From positions 1 through 26,425 of IMG/VR virus record IMGVR_UViG_3300022591_000060: a stretch of DNA of 26,425 bases; one strand, 5' to 3'. This DNA comes from a virus. Position 1 is the first letter of the stretch. Each line of letters starts with the position of its first letter. Under the pieces are notes generated by a model. That model ran no database searches. It was not told the origin of the DNA and saw nothing but the letters and a program-made list of their open reading frames with translations. The translations under genes were made by a program, and so were the position numbers. This document shows positions 9,912 to 25,234 of the stretch, one piece after another.

Positions 9912-11143
9912 TGATCTATGTAGAAGACTTGATCCTACGGCTATGCGGCGCCGGGAAGTGGCTATTTGACCCTCCCCTGATGCCTGACTCTGGTTGGGAA
10001 TGGGAGTTTGTTAGTTCAGTAGCTGAACAAATTGGCGTAGGTAATGCTATGCCTGAAAAGCAAGCTATTACTGCCATTAAGATTATCAACAAATATAAAC
10101 TTGAATTAGAAAAGAAAATTGGTCAACCTATTGACCTTAGCACTCCACAATTCAAACAATCATTTAGAATTTTAAGTGAAGACAAATCAATTACTATCGG
10201 AAAGGTTAATGGTGTAGAATCTATCATTGTGCGCTTTCCGTATAACCCGGATGTAATTAGAAGTATTAACGAACACGTAAAGAATAGCGACTGGCAAAGT
10301 ATCCAGTGGAATTCTAGGCTACATCAAGTAGTGGCCAATTGGGAAGGCACTGATAAATTTTGGCGATTTTCCTTACTCGAAGAAAACATTTTATGGATTG
10401 CTAACAATCTATTACCTAACGGATATAATGCCTGCGACCGGTTTCTTGAACTAGTTAACGATGCCAAAGATATTGTCAATTCAATTAATGACTATGCTCC
10501 TATGGTTATTAAAGAAGAAGGCTATTACAAGTATAAAAATTGCGCAGATTCTATACAGCCACTTGGTACTAGTAACGTAATTAAATTTTTGTTTGACGCA
10601 AAGAATTACGGTATTACTGCTTGGAACGATAAGGTAGATGCTGACTACAAGTCAGTAGTAACATCGGCAGTAACACAGGACTTATTAAACAATACAACTC
10701 CAATTTGGATTGATTCAACTAAGCAACCAATTGACGCATTTAAAGATGTTATCAAATATGGTGGGCCTGTTTTGATTATTATTCCAGGTGGTAGCGAAAT
10801 AGATCATACAGTACTATGGCATCAAATGGCTTTAGATTTTGGTATTACAAATAAAGAAATGGCTGTATTGTTTAGAACACCTAACCAAAATGGTGGTGAA
10901 TTTAACAAATACGTCAAGGATAATGAACTAAACAACGAAATTAGTGAACGTACTAAAGTTGTATTTGTAAGCACTAAGATTCCTAAGCCGTTGGTAAAAT
11001 CAGGCATTAAATTTAATACAGTATTAAATCTAGGTTTTTACAATCAATTACATTTTAGTATGAGTGTAGTCTTGCAATCAGCCACCAATATAGTGTATTA
11101 TACTAATAAACAACCTCACGGGATTACCATTGGCAACTGCTAA
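9911..11143 (+). CDS. Helicase-like protein without ATPase motifs, beside UvsW
   Basis: 410 residues. Around 100-165 there is a pattern (VRFPYNPDVIRSINEHVKN...WN...HQVVANWEG) that resembles the HARP-type substrate-recognition domain of annealing helicases such as SMARCAL1. The C-terminal 160 residues alternate beta strands and helices (GPVLIIIPGG, KVVFVSTKIPK, FNTVLNLGFYNQ, SATNIVYYTN) like a RecA-fold lobe, but no Walker A (GxGKT) or DExH is present. It overlaps the UvsW start by 14 bases and follows the UvsY-like gene, so it belongs to the same operon. I infer a degenerate SF2-type partner that works with UvsW on branched DNA. A plain conserved hypothetical is the safe call. Confidence 0.6.
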   Translation: MIYVEDLILRLCGAGKWLFDPPLMPDSGWEWEFVSSVAEQIGVGNAMPEKQAITAIKIINKYKLELEKKIGQPIDLSTPQFKQSFRILSEDKSITIGKVNGVESIIVRFPYNPDVIRSINEHVKNSDWQSIQWNSRLHQVVANWEGTDKFWRFSLLEENILWIANNLLPNGYNACDRFLELVNDAKDIVNSINDYAPMVIKEEGYYKYKNCADSIQPLGTSNVIKFLFDAKNYGITAWNDKVDADYKSVVTSAVTQDLLNNTTPIWIDSTKQPIDAFKDVIKYGGPVLIIIPGGSEIDHTVLWHQMALDFGITNKEMAVLFRTPNQNGGEFNKYVKDNELNNEISERTKVVFVSTKIPKPLVKSGIKFNTVLNLGFYNQLHFSMSVVLQSATNIVYYTNKQPHGITIGNC

Positions 11144-12584
11144 ACTAATAATTAAAGACGAAGTTAACGTTAAGTTTGAAAATCTAGATCTAGATACAAG
11201 AAAAGAACTAGTGAAGAAATTTAAGTATTTCGACAACAAGGCAAGATATATGCCTGCGTACAAACTCGGACGTTGGGATGGTTGTACTACATTCTTTGGA
11301 CTCGGCGGTACAAGTTATGTAAGTTTGCTAGATCGTATCCTTCCAGAACTAGAACGTATTGGATACTACATCGAAGTAGAAGATGAGCGAGTTAGTCCTG
11401 TTTTAGAGTTTGCTAAAATTACTGAAGAGTATTGGGGTGACATGTGTTGGCCTGAAGGACATCGCTTTGCTGGACAACCTATTAGACTTCGAGATGACCA
11501 AGTAGGTGTTGTTAATACATTCTTAGAAAATCCGCAGAGTTTACAATCTGTAGCTACTGGTGCTGGTAAGACTATTATGACTGCTACATTAAGTAAGATT
11601 TGCGAGAAGTATGGACGAACACTAGTTATTGTTCCAAACAAAAGTCTAGTTGAACAAACTGAAGAAGATTATGTTAACGTTGGATTGGACGTCGGTGTTT
11701 ACTATGGCGATCGCAAGGACTTAGGTAAGACGCATACTATTTGTACTTGGCAGTCACTAAACATTCTTGATAAGAAAACTAAGAATGGCGAAGCTGATTT
11801 AATTACACTTGCTGAGTTCTTAGAAGGTGTTAGCTGTATTATTATTGACGAAGTACACCAAGCCAAAGCAGAAGTATTAAAGAATCTTTTAACACAGAAT
11901 TTACGTAATGCGCCAATTCGTTGGGGACTTACTGGAACTATTCCAAAAGATGATTTAGAGTTTGAAAGTATCCGTTGTAGCTTAGGCAATGTAGTAGGTA
12001 CTGTTACTGCGCACGAGTTACAGGAAAAAGGAATTCTATCAGGATGCCATGTAAACGTAGTACAAACACAAGAATGGAAAGAGTTTGCAAGCTATCAAGC
12101 AGAGTTAAAGTATCTAGTAACAGATGATACTAGAATGGAATGGATTAGCAAACTAATTAAAGGTATTGCCGACAGTGGCAACACTTTAGTACTAGTTGAT
12201 AGAATTGAAACAGGTAACTTTATTATTAATGAAATACCAGATTCAGTGTTTATCAGTGGAGCAGTAAAATCAACAAAACGTAAGGAACAATATCGCGAAG
12301 TAGCAACAAACGATGACAAGATTATTGTCGCAACATATGGCGTTGCTGCCGTGGGTATTAATATTCCTAGGATTTTTAATCTTGTACTGTTGGAGCCTGG
12401 AAAGAGTTTTGTTCGGGTAATTCAAAGTATTGGGCGAGGTGTACGTAAAGCCGAGGATAAAGATTTCGTACAGATTTGGGATTTAACAGCAAATACCAAA
12501 TACGCAAAAAGACATTTAACAGAACGCAAAAGATTCTATAAGGAAGCCAAATACCCGTTCACTATTGAAAAGGTAAAATATTAA
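11130..12584 (+). CDS. uvsW: UvsW-like SF2 DNA helicase
   Basis: 484 residues (T4 UvsW 503). UvsW is a RecG-like DNA/RNA helicase that moves branches, reverses forks and removes R-loops in the switch from origin to recombination-dependent replication. The N-terminal 110 residues form the DNA-binding domain (KFKYFDNKARYMPAYKLGRWDG). Motif I VATGAGKT (141-148), motif II DEVH (240-243), motif III GLTGT (266-270) and motif VI QSIGRGVRK are all present. The start used is TTG at 11130, inside the end of the previous gene; no ATG is available before the conserved N-terminal domain. The overlap implies coupling. Confidence 0.94.
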   Translation: MATAKLIIKDEVNVKFENLDLDTRKELVKKFKYFDNKARYMPAYKLGRWDGCTTFFGLGGTSYVSLLDRILPELERIGYYIEVEDERVSPVLEFAKITEEYWGDMCWPEGHRFAGQPIRLRDDQVGVVNTFLENPQSLQSVATGAGKTIMTATLSKICEKYGRTLVIVPNKSLVEQTEEDYVNVGLDVGVYYGDRKDLGKTHTICTWQSLNILDKKTKNGEADLITLAEFLEGVSCIIIDEVHQAKAEVLKNLLTQNLRNAPIRWGLTGTIPKDDLEFESIRCSLGNVVGTVTAHELQEKGILSGCHVNVVQTQEWKEFASYQAELKYLVTDDTRMEWISKLIKGIADSGNTLVLVDRIETGNFIINEIPDSVFISGAVKSTKRKEQYREVATNDDKIIVATYGVAAVGINIPRIFNLVLLEPGKSFVRVIQSIGRGVRKAEDKDFVQIWDLTANTKYAKRHLTERKRFYKEAKYPFTIEKVKY

Positions 12585-13799: not shown

Positions 13800-13972
13800 A
13801 AGTTGGATTATGGACTGTGGCTGTTCAAGAAGACGGCAAGGTATATTTAGAAGACAACGATTTTCAACACGATGTACGACTATATGTTAACGGTGATTTT
13901 GCTACACCGGAACAACATTGGGAATATGCTTCAGTACTGGCTAGAAAACTAAACGGAACATATACAGACTAA
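13796..13972 (+). CDS. Small 58-residue protein, tightly coupled
   Basis: ATG at 13796 overlaps the previous TGA (ATGA), and its TAA at 13970-13972 overlaps the next ATG (TAATG). The translation begins MKVGLWTVAVQEDGKVYLED and ends NGTYTD; it has two beta-like stretches and a C-terminal helix (QHWEYASVLARKL). The perfect fit into the gap and codon use like the neighbours make it a real gene although it is short. Function unknown. Confidence 0.75.
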   Translation: MKVGLWTVAVQEDGKVYLEDNDFQHDVRLYVNGDFATPEQHWEYASVLARKLNGTYTD

Positions 13973-14667
13973 TGTTCAAACTAGAAGAACAACCTTTCGT
14001 TTGCGTTCACTGCGGAAAGAGTTTTATGAAAGAAAAAACTCTAATGGCTCATATGTGTGAGCCAAAGCGCCGTGCTATGCAGAAGACAGAAAAGCGTGTT
14101 CAAGCAGGTTATATGGCGTGGAATCGTTGGTATGCGCTAAGTCAAAATCAACGTACTCTAAAAAGCTATGAAGACTTTTGTAAAAGTTCTTACTACAACG
14201 CCTTTGTTAAATTTGGTAGTTTTGTAACTAATGTTAACCCACTATACCCGGACAAGTTTATCGACTTTGTTATTAAGAGTGGAGTTAAGTTAGACCATTG
14301 GTGCCGTGATGAGTTATATGATACCTATCTAAAAGAAATTCTAAAGATAGAACCAGTCGAAGCCGCAGTACAACGTTCAATTACAACTATGATGGAATGG
14401 GGTGATAGTAGTGGTGCTCAATGGTTCCATTACTTTAACTATGCCAATTTTAATCGTGCGGTTAGTGATATACGTAATGGTAAAATTAGTGCGTGGATCG
14501 TGTTGAATTGTACTACTGGTAAAGCTATGCTTGAAAATATGAATGACGAGCAATTAGAATTAATTCAGACTGTTTTGGATATTCCTTTCTGGGTACATCA
14601 TTTTAAATCTAAAAAAGCTGACGTGGAATTAGTAAAAGAAATATGTAGGGAGAGCGGAATTGAATAA
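13972..14667 (+). CDS. Zinc-finger (C2HC) protein of the replication operon
   Basis: 231 residues. The N-terminus holds a zinc finger C-x2-C-x12-H-x-C with C11, C14, H27 and C29 (FVCVHCGKSFMKEKTLMAHMC). A basic segment follows (KRRAMQKTEKRV), then a helical domain rich in aromatic residues (AWNRWYALSQNQ, YYNAFVKFGSF, EWGDSSGAQWFHYFNYANFN). No catalytic motif. I recall zinc-finger proteins of this kind near clamp-loader genes of aquatic T4-like phages. A nucleic-acid-binding regulator of transcription or replication is inferred from the finger and the context. Confidence 0.65.
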   Translation: MFKLEEQPFVCVHCGKSFMKEKTLMAHMCEPKRRAMQKTEKRVQAGYMAWNRWYALSQNQRTLKSYEDFCKSSYYNAFVKFGSFVTNVNPLYPDKFIDFVIKSGVKLDHWCRDELYDTYLKEILKIEPVEAAVQRSITTMMEWGDSSGAQWFHYFNYANFNRAVSDIRNGKISAWIVLNCTTGKAMLENMNDEQLELIQTVLDIPFWVHHFKSKKADVELVKEICRESGIE

Positions 14668-14881
14668 AGAAAATTTAGTACGTGTACTCAAAGGACAGGA
14701 TAAGATACAGAGCTTTCGTTGTAGTGTACTAGACTGGCACCGCTGGACTACCTGGAGTATGATTGAACAAGATTGGGAAAAAGGTCCACTGAGTCCGAGA
14801 CTGCGATGCTATTGTGCTGATTGTGGTCGTACACGATTTGAAAACCCTTACAGCAACACACTTAGGAAGAACTCAGAATGA
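14660..14881 (+). CDS. Small Cys-containing protein, TTG start
   Basis: 73 residues from TTG at 14660, chosen because AGGGAG (14647-14652) is well placed before it. Cysteines 21, 50, 52 and 55 and H27 could form a small metal site (the RCYCADCG part looks like a half zinc ribbon). A later ATG at about 14759 would remove C21 and H27. It overlaps the previous stop by 8 bases and its TGA overlaps the next ATG. Function unknown. Confidence 0.6.
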   Translation: MNKENLVRVLKGQDKIQSFRCSVLDWHRWTTWSMIEQDWEKGPLSPRLRCYCADCGRTRFENPYSNTLRKNSE

Positions 14882-15210
14882 GCAGAGTATTACCAATGTC
14901 AGAATCTCTTATGAAATTTTGTAAAGTGTTTAATGCTGAAGTATTAGATAGTGATAGAAAATTTAAACGAGTAAAAATGCCAAGTTGGCCGGATTACGAA
15001 AACCCCGATATCAGTTATGAAGTTGAAGAACTTCCTGCGGTCGCAATTCACCTACCTCGTGAAAAACTTAAAGATTTTTTAAGTGTAGTTGACGAACAGC
15101 GATACAAAGAATTAGAAATTAGAGATCAAGTTCCGGCAGTAAAAAAAGCATATGAGCATTACAAAATGTTATTGAACATGTGCGGAGGAGATTACGATGC
15201 CAGATATTGA
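14878..15210 (+). CDS. Conserved hypothetical protein before PolIII-like gene
   Basis: 110 residues starting MSRVLPMSESLMKF. The second half is helical with the pattern AIHLPREKLKDFLSVVDEQ and RDQVPAVKKAYEHYKMLL, which I recall from small proteins of aquatic T4-like phages. It has no catalytic motif. ATGA coupling to the previous gene and a 14-base overlap with the PolIII-alpha-like gene tie it to the operon. A protein-protein partner of the next gene is possible but not shown. Confidence 0.65.
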   Translation: MSRVLPMSESLMKFCKVFNAEVLDSDRKFKRVKMPSWPDYENPDISYEVEELPAVAIHLPREKLKDFLSVVDEQRYKELEIRDQVPAVKKAYEHYKMLLNMCGGDYDARY

Positions 15211-15754
15211 TATTGACTTTTTAGATCGAACAAAAGCTCTAGAAGTATTAGAGCACGTACCTGCGGTTTTGGAAGATGGTAAGAAACATAACACCGGAGT
15301 TTACTGTCAACGCATACCTAACAATCCATTAACTGGATTAGCTAGCATTGATTACAAAACTGCCGAAGACCGCGGATATATGAAGATAGATTTTTTGAAT
15401 GTTGGCATATATCAAGGTGTTCGTAATGAAGAGCATCTGATTAACTTGATGAATACTGAGCCATTATGGGATCTACTGCTAGAAGACGACTTTACCAATC
15501 AGCTATTTCACGTAAACGGACATGGTTCTATTCTCAGAGAGATGAAACCCAGAAGCATACCGCAACTAGCGGCAGTATTGGCAGTAATTCGTCCAGCAAA
15601 AAGACATTTGATCGGAAAAGATTGGACAACCGTAATGAATGAAGTGTGGGTTAAGCCGGTAGGTGACGAATATTTCTTTAAGAAAGCTCACGCTGTGGCG
15701 TATGCGGCTGCAATTGTTGTACAGATGAATTTAATCTGTGAAAACCTAGTCTAA
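15197..15754 (+). CDS. Miniature DNA polymerase III alpha (DnaE)-like protein
   Basis: 185 residues, against more than 1000 for DnaE/PolC. It starts MPDIDIDF, the palm motif of family C polymerases (E. coli MPDFDVDF with catalytic D401 and D403); the following RTKALEVLEHV also fits DnaE (KRDQVIEHV). Residues 63-67 KIDFL match KFDFL, which carries the third catalytic Asp (D555 in E. coli), here D65. Residues 102-134 (QLFHVNGHG...MKPRSIPQLAAVLAVIRPA) match the fingers region VFQLESRG...L.P..F.D..ALVALFRPG, and 160-173 (FFKKAHAVAYAAAI) match FNKSHAAAY. Order is conserved, linkers are shortened; PHP, thumb, OB and clamp-binding domains are absent. Very strong Shine-Dalgarno GGAGGAG at 15184-15190. 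Active polymerase, partner-dependent enzyme or regulator are all open. Confidence 0.85.
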   Translation: MPDIDIDFLDRTKALEVLEHVPAVLEDGKKHNTGVYCQRIPNNPLTGLASIDYKTAEDRGYMKIDFLNVGIYQGVRNEEHLINLMNTEPLWDLLLEDDFTNQLFHVNGHGSILREMKPRSIPQLAAVLAVIRPAKRHLIGKDWTTVMNEVWVKPVGDEYFFKKAHAVAYAAAIVVQMNLICENLV

Positions 15755-16137
15755 CCTTTAGTTCTAAAGGTCCTAACTAGTTGTATTGACTTACGCTTGA
15801 TGCGTTTTTCAGCAATCTCGCTCAAATTTACAGTTGGCCCAAAAACTATACTAACGTCTTTGCTATTAAAGGTTTTAATATAGGGCCTAAACTGTGCCAT
15901 CTCAAGTTTTAGGAAAATGTTGATAGGAATCTTGCGATTGCTCTCCCACCACCATGTTTCTCCAAGCTCTAAAAACAAAGATTTTTCAATTTCTGTCCGT
16001 ATAGTGCTAAAGTCGTAGATGCTGGTTACGTTATTGTCAAAATTTATGACAATACCTACGTATTCGTCTTCGTTACATTTAATACATGAAATGAACGGAA
16101 AGTTTTGTTGAAATTCGGTGTCTTTATTATGTCTCAT
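15751..16137 (-). CDS. Conserved hypothetical protein (opposite strand)
   Basis: 128 residues starting MRHNKDTEFQQNFPF. The core has short strands and aromatic residues (CIKCNEDEYVGIVINFD, LFLELGETWWWESNRKIP, FLKLEMAQFRPYIKTFN) and a basic C-terminus (EKRIKRKSIQLVRTFR). I recall the GETWWWESNR...PINIFL pattern from aquatic T4-like phages with unknown function. It runs against the replication operon; its TAG overlaps the TAA of the PolIII-like gene by three bases. No late-promoter-like motif or Shine-Dalgarno is obvious upstream. Confidence 0.75.
   Translation of the reverse strand: MRHNKDTEFQQNFPFISCIKCNEDEYVGIVINFDNNVTSIYDFSTIRTEIEKSLFLELGETWWWESNRKIPINIFLKLEMAQFRPYIKTFNSKDVSIVFGPTVNLSEIAEKRIKRKSIQLVRTFRTKG
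15755..15770. other. Hairpin at convergent gene ends
   Basis: Perfect inverted repeat CCTTTAG / CTAAAGG directly beside the overlapping stops of two convergent genes, inside the 3' end of the minus-strand gene. No T run follows on either strand, so a terminator is uncertain; it could stabilise mRNA ends. Confidence 0.4.
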
Positions 16138-17073: not shown

Positions 17074-18084
17074 ATGAACCTGATTCAGGCAACCTTTATA
17101 AACTTCTTACCTGCGAAAAGAAAACAAACCCCAAGTGGGTGGGTTAGCTTTAACGCACCCTGTTGCGTCCATAATGGGGAGAAGGTAGACAAACGCCAGC
17201 GTGGTGGTGTATTGACCAGTGGTGAAGGTGGTTTTCAGTACCATTGCTTTAACTGCGGGTTCAAAGCAGGGTGGAGTCCAGGTAAACTATTAAGTAAAAA
17301 TACTAAAAATCTCATGCGTTGGATGAGCATGCCAGATGACGACATCAACAAACTTACACTAGAGGCCCTGAAGAATAAGGAAGAATTAGCGGCCACGCCA
17401 ATTCCACTAAATTTTGGTCTCGAACCCCGAGAATTGCCAGAAAATTGCCTTCCTATACAAACATGGATCGACGAAGGTTGCGAGGATCCAGACTTCCTAG
17501 AAGTAGTTGCGTACATTTTTGATCGTGGCATGGAGCTTGACTGGTATGACTGGATGTGGACTCCTGAGCCCGGTTATAAGGACCGTGTAATTATTCCATT
17601 TTTTCATGAAAAAGTGGTGGTAGGCTGGACAGGACGTAAAATTAGAGATGGGCGACCAAAGTACTTGACTACAGCACAACCGGGTTATGTTTTTAATATC
17701 GATGCTCAGTCGCATGATAGAAAATATGTAATTGTTGTTGAAGGACAATTTGATGCCATCGCAGTAGACGGTGTGGCAATCATGCATAATGACCCCAATC
17801 AGACGCAAATTTCCAGGATTTCTGCGTTGGGTCGTGAAGTCATAATTGTCCCTGACAACGACAAGGCCGGGGCTAAATTAATATCCGCGGCTATTGAACA
17901 GGGATGGTCCGTTAGCTTGCCTGACTGGGGCCCTGACGTAAAAGACGTAGCAGACGCAGTGAAGAAATTTGGTAGAATTTACACTCTTTTTACCATTTTA
18001 AAGTACCGAGAAACAGGCGAAACAAAAATTAAACTATTGAGAAAAAAACTTGAACACAAACATGACGAATCCACAACCACCTAA
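17074..18084 (+). CDS. 61: DNA primase gp61
   Basis: 336 residues (T4 gp61 342). It makes short RNA primers for lagging-strand synthesis together with helicase gp41. The N-terminal zinc-binding domain has C30/C31, H33, C58 and C61 (CCVHNG...YHCFNCGF). The TOPRIM catalytic core carries E223 in VVEGQFDA and D261/D263 in IIVPDNDKAG. The C-terminus is basic (KIKLLRKKLEHK). It overlaps the gp41 gene, so primase and helicase are made together. Upstream, a degenerate late-like octamer (TTAAAATA) ends 5 bases before ATG; no clear Shine-Dalgarno. Confidence 0.95.
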   Translation: MNLIQATFINFLPAKRKQTPSGWVSFNAPCCVHNGEKVDKRQRGGVLTSGEGGFQYHCFNCGFKAGWSPGKLLSKNTKNLMRWMSMPDDDINKLTLEALKNKEELAATPIPLNFGLEPRELPENCLPIQTWIDEGCEDPDFLEVVAYIFDRGMELDWYDWMWTPEPGYKDRVIIPFFHEKVVVGWTGRKIRDGRPKYLTTAQPGYVFNIDAQSHDRKYVIVVEGQFDAIAVDGVAIMHNDPNQTQISRISALGREVIIVPDNDKAGAKLISAAIEQGWSVSLPDWGPDVKDVADAVKKFGRIYTLFTILKYRETGETKIKLLRKKLEHKHDESTTT

Positions 18085-19492
18085 CTATAGCTCAGAAATT
18101 CAGAAGCTGTATCTCGAAATGTTCATGAGCGATGCCGAGACATTTATTCGCTGTCAGAACATATTTGACCCTGAAAATTTCGACAGAAAACTCCAAGAAG
18201 TTGCGGGCTTTATTAACACCTATGTAAATGAATATAAGGTGATGCCTGAGTCAAGTATTGTTAATGCGGCATGTAATACAGCACTAAATCCAGTCGCACT
18301 ACCAAGAGAAAACTATGATTGGCTCATGGATGAATTTGAGCAATTTAGTCGTCATAAAGGCTTAGAAAGAGCAATTTTAAAGTCAGCTGATTTACTTGAA
18401 AAGGGCGATTACGGTCCTGTAGAAAAGATGATTAAGGATGCTGTTCAAATTAGTTTGAACAAAGACATGGGTACAGATTACTTCTTAGACCCACGTGGAC
18501 GTCTCGAAGGATTGAAGAATAGTAATGGTCAAATTTCGACAGGTTGGCCAAGCATTGACAAGAAATTATATGGTGGATTTAACCGAGGTGAACTTAACAT
18601 TTGGTGTGCGGCATCAGGTGGCGGTAAATCATTATTCCTCGCTAACCTAGGATGTAACTGGGCATTGGCAGGGCTTAACGTAATTTATCTTACATTTGAG
18701 TTGAGCGAAGCACTTGTAGCTATGCGTATGGATAGTATGTTAACTGATGTGCCAACTCGTGAGATTTTTAAGAATCTTGAGGATGTTGAACTTAAGGTTA
18801 AGATGCTTGGTAAGAAAGCAGGAAGCATACAAATCAAATATTTGCCAAGTGGTAAGAACGCAAATGATATTCGTGCGTACTTGAAAGAGTATCAAGTTAA
18901 GAAAGGGTTTAAACCAGACATTATCTTAATTGACTACTTGGATTTAATGATGCCAATGAGTGTTAAAGTTAGCCCAAGTGATTTGTTTGTTAAGGACAAA
19001 TATGTATCGGAAGAGTTACGTAACTTAGCAATGGAAACTCAATCTATTGTATGTACAGCGAGTCAGTTGAATCGTAGTGCTGTTGAAGAAATTGAGTTTG
19101 ATCACAGTCATATTTCAGGCGGTTTATCAAAGATTCAAACGGCAGATAACGTAATTGGTATCTTTACAAGTCGAGCAATGAAAGAACGTGGACGTTATCA
19201 AATTCAGTTTATGAAGACACGTTCAAGCTCAGGTGTTGGACAGAAAGTTGATTTAGAGTTTGATGTAGATACTTTGCGAATTAAAGATTTAGGCGACGAA
19301 GATGACTACAACAATAAACCTAAAACAAATATCTATGACAGTTTGAAAAAGACAAGTACAGTTCTTGATCAAGAAACTGGTGAGATTAAATCAGATCCTA
19401 TGGAAGGAATTCCAGTAGGTAAGATTAAAGGTGTACAGGGCAATTCTAAAGTTAGGGAATTGTTAGCTGGATTGAATCCAGAAAAAGATTAA
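18062..19492 (+). CDS. 41: Replicative DNA helicase gp41 (DnaB family)
   Basis: 476 residues from the ATG at 18062, equal to T4 gp41 (475); a TTG four codons upstream is the alternative. It is the hexameric 5'-3' helicase that opens the fork and carries the primase. The N-terminal helical domain spans about 1-140. Walker A is AASGGGKS (about 184-191), Walker B DIILIDYLDLM, followed by TASQLNRSAVE and the DnaB-type HISGGLSKIQTADN and IQFMKTRSSSGVG sensor/arginine region. The start overlaps the primase end by 23 bases. The stop overlaps the stop of the convergent YqgE gene. Confidence 0.96.
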   Translation: MTNPQPPNYSSEIQKLYLEMFMSDAETFIRCQNIFDPENFDRKLQEVAGFINTYVNEYKVMPESSIVNAACNTALNPVALPRENYDWLMDEFEQFSRHKGLERAILKSADLLEKGDYGPVEKMIKDAVQISLNKDMGTDYFLDPRGRLEGLKNSNGQISTGWPSIDKKLYGGFNRGELNIWCAASGGGKSLFLANLGCNWALAGLNVIYLTFELSEALVAMRMDSMLTDVPTREIFKNLEDVELKVKMLGKKAGSIQIKYLPSGKNANDIRAYLKEYQVKKGFKPDIILIDYLDLMMPMSVKVSPSDLFVKDKYVSEELRNLAMETQSIVCTASQLNRSAVEEIEFDHSHISGGLSKIQTADNVIGIFTSRAMKERGRYQIQFMKTRSSSGVGQKVDLEFDVDTLRIKDLGDEDDYNNKPKTNIYDSLKKTSTVLDQETGEIKSDPMEGIPVGKIKGVQGNSKVRELLAGLNPEKD

Positions 19493-20049
19493 AACAGAGT
19501 TGATATTTTTTGGTTGACGCAGTGGTTAATCGCAAGTTGCCACTGCTCTTCCCCTGTTCCAATTAAACATACTTCAGAAGTAGCAGGAGCAGTTAACCAT
19601 TGATGATCAACAGTCCACGGATGTTGTCCGCTCATTTCCCCTTCAAGTTGTCCAGCACTCCAAGCCGCTAACCCAATACCAATTCGATACAGCGCAGGGC
19701 CTTCGCCTTGGCTAATTGCGGCCAACACGCTCATATCTCCCGTAATGCCCAATTCTGGAGTTATGGGTAAAGTGCTAGGACTGGACCAATCTAAGCTGTG
19801 TACTACATGCACCCTAGTTGGTTCTACTGGACCACCTACATATACCTTAGCAGGGTTATTATACTCAATTCCAGCCGCGGCCATAACTGCTCGTATATCT
19901 AAGGAACTTGCTTCTCTGTTTACAGTAACTCCCCAAGCGCCATTGACGCCGTGTTGGACAACTAGGATCACTGCTTTGGAGAACAGATTACTGTGGGTTT
20001 TGGGTTGGGTTACAAGTATGTTACCTGCGAGCGAGTTGAAAACAGTCAT
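19489..20049 (-). CDS. YqgE/AlgH family protein
   Basis: 186 residues, the normal family size. Family signatures in order: GNILVTQPKTHSNLFSKAVILVVQHG, GAWGVTVNR, VYVGGPVEPTRVHVVHS, LGITGDMSVL, YRIGIGLAAWSAGQLEGEM and HPWTVDHQWL. YqgE/AlgH proteins are conserved in proteobacteria; AlgH has been linked to alginate control in Pseudomonas but the biochemical role is unsettled. The gene stands alone on the minus strand, convergent with gp41 (stops overlapping) and divergent from the nucleotidyltransferase gene. In a phage it is an acquired host-type gene, possibly auxiliary. It is full length with no visible damage, so it is likely kept for function. Confidence 0.9.
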   Translation of the reverse strand: MTVFNSLAGNILVTQPKTHSNLFSKAVILVVQHGVNGAWGVTVNREASSLDIRAVMAAAGIEYNNPAKVYVGGPVEPTRVHVVHSLDWSSPSTLPITPELGITGDMSVLAAISQGEGPALYRIGIGLAAWSAGQLEGEMSGQHPWTVDHQWLTAPATSEVCLIGTGEEQWQLAINHCVNQKISTLF

Positions 20050-20078: not shown

Positions 20079-20768
20079 ATGTACATCTTTGAGTTTAATT
20101 CCCCGATTGAAATACACAACGAGCTAAACCCTGCTCTGTGGGACGACGATCAAATTAGACGTGAAATCAGCGTCAAACTGCTTCAAATCGCCAAGGAATT
20201 CTATCATTTTCTAGGGGTTTCGACGCCGATCGAAGACGTTTTAATCACGGGGTCCCAAGCCAACTACAACTACACTAAACAGTCTGACATAGATCTTCAT
20301 TTAATTGTAGACTTTAGTAAGGTAGAATGTGAAGGTGAAGTTAAAGAGCTGTTTGATACCAAACGTAAACTTTGGAAAAAGGAACACGATATTACCATTA
20401 AGGGTATCGAGGTTGAGTGCTATGTTGAGGATTCAAACGAACCCGCAGTAACTTCTAGCTATTCAATTATCTCAGATGAATGGGTTAAACAGCCTAGTAA
20501 AGATATTAAGGATTACGATCGTGAACGAGTAGAGAAGCTAGCAACTTTGTGGGCTAGCACAATTGACTCTGCTATCGACAGCGACGACTTATCAACGTGT
20601 TCAACAGTCAAAGACTACCTAGGAGTGTTCCGCAGAACTAACCTAGCTAAGGATGGAGAATTTGGTGCTGGGAACCTTGCGTTCAAGGCTCTACGCAATT
20701 CGGGATATATCGGAAGATTAATGGATAAAATTGGCGACCTTAAAGATCGCCAACTTAGTTTAAGATAA
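20079..20768 (+). CDS. Nucleotidyltransferase-fold protein
   Basis: 229 residues. The polymerase-beta-type nucleotidyltransferase signature is complete: G58-S59 in ITGSQAN, D70 and D72 in SDIDLH, and a possible third acidic residue (E113) in GIEVECYVE. The N-terminal part (FNSPIEIHNELNPALWDDDQI) and the helical C-terminal domain (about 135-229) surround the catalytic core. I recall relatives in aquatic T4-like phages. Substrates in this superfamily range from nucleic acids to proteins and small molecules, so the target is unknown. An exact T4-type late promoter precedes it. Its TAA region overlaps the stop of the convergent gene by 9 bases, and a 7-bp hairpin (TTGGCGA / TCGCCAA, 20731-20753) lies near its end. 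Confidence 0.8.
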   Translation: MYIFEFNSPIEIHNELNPALWDDDQIRREISVKLLQIAKEFYHFLGVSTPIEDVLITGSQANYNYTKQSDIDLHLIVDFSKVECEGEVKELFDTKRKLWKKEHDITIKGIEVECYVEDSNEPAVTSSYSIISDEWVKQPSKDIKDYDRERVEKLATLWASTIDSAIDSDDLSTCSTVKDYLGVFRRTNLAKDGEFGAGNLAFKALRNSGYIGRLMDKIGDLKDRQLSLR

Positions 20769-24946: not shown

Positions 24947-25234
24947 ATGTCAGAACAACAAAAAACAGCTATTGTATGGACTCGCCCAGGATGCAGTCTA
25001 TGCTATCACGTAGTAGATCGCCTAACACGTCAAGGTGTTACTGTAGAAGAACGTAAGATCGATGCGTTCCATTGGACCTTTGATCAGTTTAAACAGGCTA
25101 GCCCATCATGGTCAAACTTGCCAGTTATACAGTTACCAGACGGCACTCTATTAAAGAACATCAAAGAAGTAGATGAGTGGATTGGAAAAGATCCAGAACA
25201 GAAGATTACCTTCCATCCTAGTGCGGTGGGGTAA
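24947..25234 (+). CDS. Glutaredoxin-like thioredoxin-fold protein
   Basis: 95 residues. Active site C16-S-L-C19 in WTRPGCSLCYHV, cis-proline P59 in NLPVIQLPDG, and the glutaredoxin end (KEVDEWIG). It reduces disulphides; in T4 the counterpart NrdC serves the phage ribonucleotide reductase. The Pro-Gly before the CxxC and the -SLC- centre are seen in grx-type and related small oxidoreductases. AAGGAAA lies before the start. It follows the fibre gene by 12 bases and is probably co-transcribed with it; no reductase gene is in the window. Confidence 0.85.
   Translation: MSEQQKTAIVWTRPGCSLCYHVVDRLTRQGVTVEERKIDAFHWTFDQFKQASPSWSNLPVIQLPDGTLLKNIKEVDEWIGKDPEQKITFHPSAVG

What the first reader, a model, noticed from the sequence alone, without database searches (positions are those of the whole stretch)
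15197..15754. Miniature family C (PolIII alpha/DnaE-like) protein in a T4-like phage
A 185-residue protein keeps, in order, the family C palm motif PDIDIDF, the KIDFL motif with the third catalytic Asp, the fingers-like region ending in VIRPA, and the KAHAVAY motif, but lacks PHP, thumb, OB and clamp-binding domains. T4-like phages use family B polymerases, so a compact PolIII-alpha relative in their replication operon, with a very strong GGAGGAG ribosome-binding site, is striking. It could be an active mini-polymerase, a repair enzyme, a subunit that works with another protein, or a decoy of the host replicase.
Basis: partly seen in the sequence, partly recalled or inferred. Interest (0 to 1): 0.85.

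Follow-up and report, generated by a model that had tools for sequence, protein, structure and literature searches.

The report
Half of a split mini DNA polymerase
This phage gene encodes the metal-binding half of a tiny bacterial-type DNA polymerase whose other half is made from a second, distant gene in the same kind of phage; the split enzyme was noticed computationally in 2021, but no test of whether it makes DNA was found.

Summary
Window 15197-15754 encodes a 185-residue relative of the Pol III alpha palm and fingers, under purifying selection, with all three catalytic Asp (D3, D5, D65) invariant in 59 aligned relatives. It is not a stand-alone mini-polymerase: it begins at the MPDIDIDF motif and lacks the first half of the palm, including the nucleotide-binding GRGS loop. 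That missing half is a separate 160-185-residue protein (phrog_11127), encoded 11-224 kb away. All ten named phage genomes examined carry both halves once each, plus a family B polymerase, and no PHP domain. AlphaFold models of the halves (mean pLDDT 91-92) match E. coli Pol III alpha residues 278-393 and 400-780, so together they rebuild palm plus fingers, without PHP, thumb, OB or clamp-binding parts. Best explanation: the catalytic subunit of a two-subunit minimal family C polymerase working beside the primase-helicase. Iyer et al. 2021 already described this 'minimal split Pol III alpha' in jumbo phages, so it is a new member of a known but biochemically untested kind. Added here: a conserved junction and gene neighbourhood, a 141-kb (non-jumbo) example, and a Lactobacillus phage whose full-length dnaE carries an endonuclease-bearing insert exactly at this junction.

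The parts
15197..15754 (+). C-half of split minimal Pol III alpha (palm second half + fingers), 185 aa
   Evidence: phrog_11778 E 3e-64; AlphaFold model matches E. coli Pol III alpha 400-780 at Z 8.9
15184..15190 (+). GGAGGAG ribosome-binding-site-like sequence, 6 nt before the ATG, inside the upstream ORF
   Evidence: sequence; not conserved in most relatives
15200..15220 (+). PDIDIDF, catalytic Asp pair D3/D5 (E. coli D401/D403 by motif)
   Evidence: D3, D5, D7 invariant in 59/59 and in 68/68 including named phages
15383..15400 (+). KIDFLN, K63 and third catalytic Asp D65 (E. coli D555 by motif)
   Evidence: K63, D65 invariant; aligned with KMDFL of solved chain 5lew
15587..15601 (+). IRPAK, fingers motif; R132, P133, K135 invariant
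   Evidence: aligned with the RPG motif of solved chain 5lew
15680..15703 (+). KKAHAVAY, fingers motif; K162, H165, Y169 invariant
   Evidence: aligned with NKSHAAGY of solved chain 5lew
15751..16137 (-). phrog_11637 gene, convergent and overlapping the 3' end of the C-half gene; function unknown, constant neighbour
   Evidence: phrog_11637 E 8e-35; present on the opposite strand in 45/45 loci with enough flank; same arrangement in most named phages
14878..15210 (+). upstream ORF (110 aa) overlapping the C-half start by 14 nt; poorly conserved
   Evidence: no PHROG match; match in 9/45 loci
13972..14667 (+). phrog_11058 gene with a C2H2-like zinc finger; constant upstream neighbour
   Evidence: (zf-C2H2, below curated cut-off); 45/45 loci
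17074..18084 (+). primase (Toprim, T4 gp61-like)
   Evidence: phrog_47 E 5e-40; 45/45 loci
18050..19492 (+). DnaB-like replicative helicase (T4 gp41-like)
   Evidence: phrog_19 E 1e-73
11130..12584 (+). UvsW-like helicase
   Evidence: position and homology to annotated uvsW in RaK2 and 121Q

Best explanation
The gene encodes the C-terminal catalytic subunit of a two-subunit minimal family C (Pol III alpha-like) DNA polymerase. The second subunit (phrog_11127, 160-185 aa), from a distant gene, supplies the first part of the palm with the GRGSS nucleotide-binding loop; this subunit supplies the metal-binding Asp residues and the fingers. Neither half carries a complete active site, so they most likely assemble non-covalently into an enzyme of about 350 residues without thumb, PHP or clamp contacts, hence probably of low processivity. 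Shown: both genes present together in relatives, intact motifs, folds that tile the Pol III alpha palm and fingers. Inferred: the physical complex, polymerase activity, and its role. The role I think likeliest is short synthesis beside the primase-helicase (primer extension before hand-over to the family B polymerase, or gap/repair synthesis), because the gene is fixed near the primase gene.
For: C-half and N-half both found in 10/10 named phage genomes (nine complete, one labelled partial) and in 4 of 10 metagenomic contigs tested, once each, at distant places; N-half alone only in partial contigs. Family B polymerase in 19/20, PHP in 0/20 with 14/14 positive controls. Active-site residues invariant in both halves. 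Models: C-half = E. coli 400-780, Z 8.9; N-half residues 70-168 = E. coli 278-393, Z 9.8; above Z 3 every row is Pol III alpha or PolC. N-half profile against phage DnaE E 1.7e-10, C-half 8.5e-5. Distance matrices of the halves correlate, r 0.79 over 13 genomes, 0/5000 permutations. dN/dS about 0.14 and 0.26. Precedent: split family B halves 43A/43B of Aeromonas phage 25 co-purify and polymerise (PMC2988022).
Against: No complex was modelled (the structure tool takes one chain) and no experiment was found in the library searched. Loss of the thumb and of the usual fingers insertions could leave a non-processive or non-polymerising enzyme. The window is a 26-kb fragment without the N-half, so the partner is inferred from relatives. 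The correlated distances could reflect shared descent alone. The specific role (primer extension or repair) rests only on gene neighbourhood.
Confidence: 0.68

Rival explanations
1. The two halves form a Pol beta-superfamily nucleotidyltransferase that no longer copies a template, for example end-addition to RNA or DNA during repair.
For: The palm of family C is a Pol beta-like nucleotidyltransferase fold (stated in PMC7824862); thumb and much of the fingers are gone.
Against: Fingers motifs of Pol III alpha (the RPxK and KxH regions) are invariant; the gene sits in the replication module near the primase.
Confidence: 0.15
2. A catalytically dead regulator: a decoy of the host replicase, or a structural part of the phage replisome.
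For: It lacks the clamp-binding and OB parts and half of the palm; these phages already have a full family B polymerase.
Against: Metal-binding Asp and GRGS residues are kept in both halves across very diverged phages, which a decoy would not need; named hosts span at least two bacterial classes.
Confidence: 0.12
3. The 185-residue protein is an active mini-polymerase on its own (one option of the first reader).
For: All three catalytic Asp in one chain, well-folded model.
Against: The nucleotide-binding GRGS half of the palm is in another protein, present in every named genome tested.
Confidence: 0.03
4. A decaying remnant of a polymerase gene.
For: Short; begins in the middle of the palm; the authors of the CBB genome called their N-half 'truncated' (PMC5259590).
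Against: Hundreds of relatives, the same boundaries in those read, purifying selection, conserved synteny.
Confidence: 0.01

Closest known systems
Minimal split DNA polymerase III alpha of group 2.2 jumbo phages (Iyer et al. 2021, PMC7824862)
   Different: The window's own phage is an uncultivated relative; here the partner gene is inferred from relatives, and the family is also found in a 141-kb phage (Alishewanella phage Slicko01), below jumbo size.
Bacterial Pol III alpha (DnaE) and PolC, family C
   Same: Palm and fingers fold, catalytic DxD and third Asp, GRGS loop, fingers motifs.
   Different: Two chains instead of one; about 350 residues instead of roughly 1,100 or more; no PHP, thumb, HhH, OB, beta- or tau-binding parts.
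Split family B polymerase gp43A/gp43B of T4-related Aeromonas phages (PMC2988022)
   Same: A phage DNA polymerase cut into two gene products; there they co-purify and are active.
   Different: Family B; the gene is divided by a mobile insertion or spacer and the two pieces stay together in the genome.
Interrupted full-length dnaE of Lactobacillus phage ATCC 8014-B2 (phrog_7513 + phrog_12219)
   Same: The interruption falls between the same palm elements, inside the D-I-D codons.
   Different: Full-size polymerase; the pieces are adjacent, with an endonuclease-like gene (NUMOD3) in the insert.

Membership tests
Minimal split Pol III alpha (Iyer et al. 2021) | Small C-terminal protein with Mg-binding Asp and DNA-template-binding fingers | tested here: met
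Minimal split Pol III alpha (Iyer et al. 2021) | Separate N-terminal NTP-binding protein from a distant gene | tested here: met
   20/20 records of relatives, including 10/10 named genomes; not in the 26-kb window itself
Minimal split Pol III alpha (Iyer et al. 2021) | Co-occurs with a family B polymerase and no PHP domain | tested here: met
   PF00136 19/20, PHP 0/20; in relatives only
Minimal split Pol III alpha (Iyer et al. 2021) | Reconstituted polymerase activity | not testable with these tools
   needs biochemistry; the 2021 paper also only predicts it
Family C replicative polymerase (DnaE/PolC) | Palm with DxD, third Asp and GRGS loop | tested here: met
   met only by the two halves together
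Family C replicative polymerase (DnaE/PolC) | Single chain with PHP, thumb, OB and clamp-binding parts | tested here: not met
   185 + about 168 residues; no PHP in 20 records; thumb region absent from the C-half alignment
Pseudogene or decaying fragment | Relaxed selection, stop codons, no conserved boundaries | tested here: not met

The most novel reading that the evidence does not exclude
A DNA polymerase of about 350 residues, made of two non-covalently joined chains cut between the nucleotide-binding loop and the metal-binding strand, works beside a family B replicase as a dedicated primer-extending or repair enzyme; it arose when a mobile endonuclease insertion at the catalytic DxD codons of a phage dnaE cut the gene, after which the halves moved apart and shed their accessory domains.
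Probability: 0.25. Interest if true: 0.75.

Novelty: new member of a known kind. Interest (0 to 1): 0.48.

Why it matters
If active, it would be among the smallest templated DNA polymerases and would show how little of a family C polymerase is needed to copy DNA. It would also pose the question of why phages with a T4-type replisome keep a second polymerase as two separate genes across many lineages. The prediction of obligate pairing is simple to test by co-expression.

Tried and rejected
Pfam and PDB sequence searches with the single protein are nearly blind (PF17657 E 0.25; best PDB E 0.92); profiles were needed. Split intein or trans-splicing to rejoin the halves: no intein-like extension at the end of the N-half or the start of the C-half; no Rfam match in the window. 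A group I intron in the Lactobacillus phage insert was not detected by Rfam at E 0.05, so it is called only an endonuclease-bearing insert. A fused single-chain minimal form was not found among about 200 loci, though the search was not exhaustive. Cellular origin: the eight genome-collection hits are in metagenome-assembled genomes of unrelated phyla and look like binned phage contigs (inference); plasmids none. One scan with the SCTP-2 N-half found nothing. No experimental study of the family was found in the open-access library, which lacks most subscription journals.

Full report
What is there. It belongs to phrog_11778, named 'DNA polymerase' (E 3e-64). At least 549 relatives were found in IMG/VR, and 63 named phage records match, from Pseudomonas phage PA5oct to RaK2, 121Q, Atu_ph07 and Phosso. 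In 59 aligned sequences D3, D5, D7, K63, D65, R132, P133, K135, K162, H165 and Y169 are invariant; the three D of DIDID and D65 stay invariant in 68 sequences that include the most diverged named phages. Median dN/dS is about 0.14. It is a working gene, not a remnant.

The missing half. In the close relatives the gene starts at the M of MPDIDIDF with no useful in-frame upstream extension; in the more diverged phages up to about 14 residues precede the DxD. In bacterial Pol III alpha this motif lies in mid-palm and follows the GRGS loop that holds the incoming nucleotide (established knowledge of DnaE structures). A search of ten large relatives with the Pfam palm model found a second small ORF in the 270-kb record G001, 168 residues long, ending '...GVGRGSSVASYVLYLIGVHKIDSLKYNLDWREFLR'. 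This is the first half of the palm. It belongs to phrog_11127, also named 'DNA polymerase'.

Both halves travel together. Across 20 records the N-half is in 20 and the C-half in 14. The six without the C-half are contigs that were chosen because they carry the N-half and are probably fragments. All ten named genomes (Paride, Atu_ph07, Phosso, SCTP-2, RaK2, 121Q, CM1, Slicko01, XacN1, Vibrio phage 2.275.O, the last labelled partial) carry one copy of each, from about 11 kb (Slicko01) to about 224 kb (Phosso) apart. A family B polymerase is in 19 of 20, and a PHP domain in none, while all 14 control genomes gave PHP. In G001 the family B enzyme looks intact by eye, with SLYPS and GDTDS motifs. 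Distances between phages computed from the two halves correlate (r 0.79, 13 genomes, 0 of 5000 permutations), as expected for co-inheritance.

Structure. AlphaFold gave confident models of the C-half (mean pLDDT 91.6, pTM 0.80) and of the G001 N-half (91.3, 0.70). For the C-half, all 15 matches with Z above 3 are Pol III alpha or PolC; on E. coli 2hnh it spans 400-780 (Z 8.9, 180 residues, 4.1 A). For the N-half, residues 70-168 span 278-393 of 2hnh (Z 9.8, 97 residues, 2.8 A). On E. coli the halves thus tile the chain with a gap of six residues; the thumb and large parts of the fingers are skipped. Profile comparison to full-length phage DnaE agrees (N-half E 1.7e-10; C-half 8.5e-5). The meeting of D3, D5 and D65 in one site follows from this fold match and the motif alignment; I had no coordinates to measure it.

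Neighbourhood. The window carries a T4-like module: gp32-like protein, UvsX, UvsY, UvsW, the C-half, primase and DnaB-like helicase. In 45 relatives with enough flank, the primase gene, the zinc-finger gene phrog_11058 and an antisense gene phrog_11637 are present in all; in most loci phrog_11637 overlaps the 3' end of the C-half gene by a few to about 20 bases. The same order holds in RaK2, 121Q, Paride, Atu_ph07, SCTP-2 and others.

How it probably works. The N-half should supply the nucleotide-holding loop and the C-half the metal-binding Asp and fingers, so that only the pair makes an active site. Without thumb and clamp contacts I expect short, poorly processive synthesis. Its fixed place near the primase suggests extension of primers before hand-over to the family B polymerase, or repair synthesis; Iyer et al. 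suggested synthesis of one strand or repair. The pairing is well supported by inference; the role is a guess from gene order.

Prior work. Iyer et al. 2021 (PMC7824862) described exactly this: a 'phage-specific minimal version' of Pol III alpha, split into two proteins from distant genes, in group 2.2 jumbo phages with a family B polymerase, likely to reconstitute a complete enzyme. They regard it as a model of an ancestral form. The CBB paper saw only the N-half and called it truncated (PMC5259590). So the window gene is a new member of a known kind.

A clue to origin. In Lactobacillus phage ATCC 8014-B2 the full-size dnaE is interrupted by an insert with a NUMOD3-bearing, endonuclease-like gene; aligned to the uninterrupted dnaE of phage ATCCB, the cut lies between ...FPD (residue 486) and IDID (487), that is inside the catalytic DxD codons and at the place where the minimal polymerase is cut. 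Mobile endonucleases are known to target conserved codons of polymerase genes and to split genes into halves that still assemble (PMC2988022). This suggests fission followed by relocation and reduction, as an alternative to an ancient minimal form; my evidence does not decide between them, and the Lactobacillus phage is not a close relative.

Noticed in passing
window 15751-16137 (-): phrog_11637 gene of unknown function, convergent with and usually overlapping the C-half gene in all 45 relatives with enough flank and in most named phages; a candidate partner.
   Followed up: partly
window 19489-20049 (-): AlgH/DUF179 (YqgE-like) protein in a phage (PF02622 E 7e-31).
   Followed up: no
window 20079-20768 (+): Small nucleotidyltransferase-domain protein (PF01909, phrog_36119).
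   Followed up: no
window 13972-14667 (+): Protein with an N-terminal C2H2-like zinc finger (phrog_11058), a constant upstream neighbour of the C-half gene.
   Followed up: partly
L211-L217; L221 (Mycobacterium phage Cuke); L222 (phage TR-TP2): Larger phage DnaE proteins split at a different point, after the third catalytic Asp; by eye an exonuclease-like ORF lies between the pieces in L211, L214, L215 and L217, an annotated HNH endonuclease gene in L222, and nothing in Cuke.
   Followed up: partly
L217 2881-5232: Intein with HNH endonuclease inserted at the IRPG motif of the phage DnaE fingers (Intein_splicing E 2e-8, just below its cut-off; HNH E 3e-5).
   Followed up: partly
L218 3722-4690 (Lactobacillus phage ATCC 8014-B2): Endonuclease-bearing insert inside the catalytic DxD codons of full-length dnaE; Rfam finds no intron family at E 0.05.
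   Followed up: partly
Records W01 (Paride), W02 (Atu_ph07), W08 (Slicko01): Family B polymerase matches fall in two different open frames in these phages, suggesting that it too is split or interrupted.
   Followed up: no
L223-L230: C-half genes in metagenome-assembled genomes labelled as unrelated bacteria and archaea; probably phage contigs binned by mistake.
   Followed up: no
window 24947-25234 (+): Glutaredoxin-like protein (PF00462 E 7e-6).
   Followed up: no
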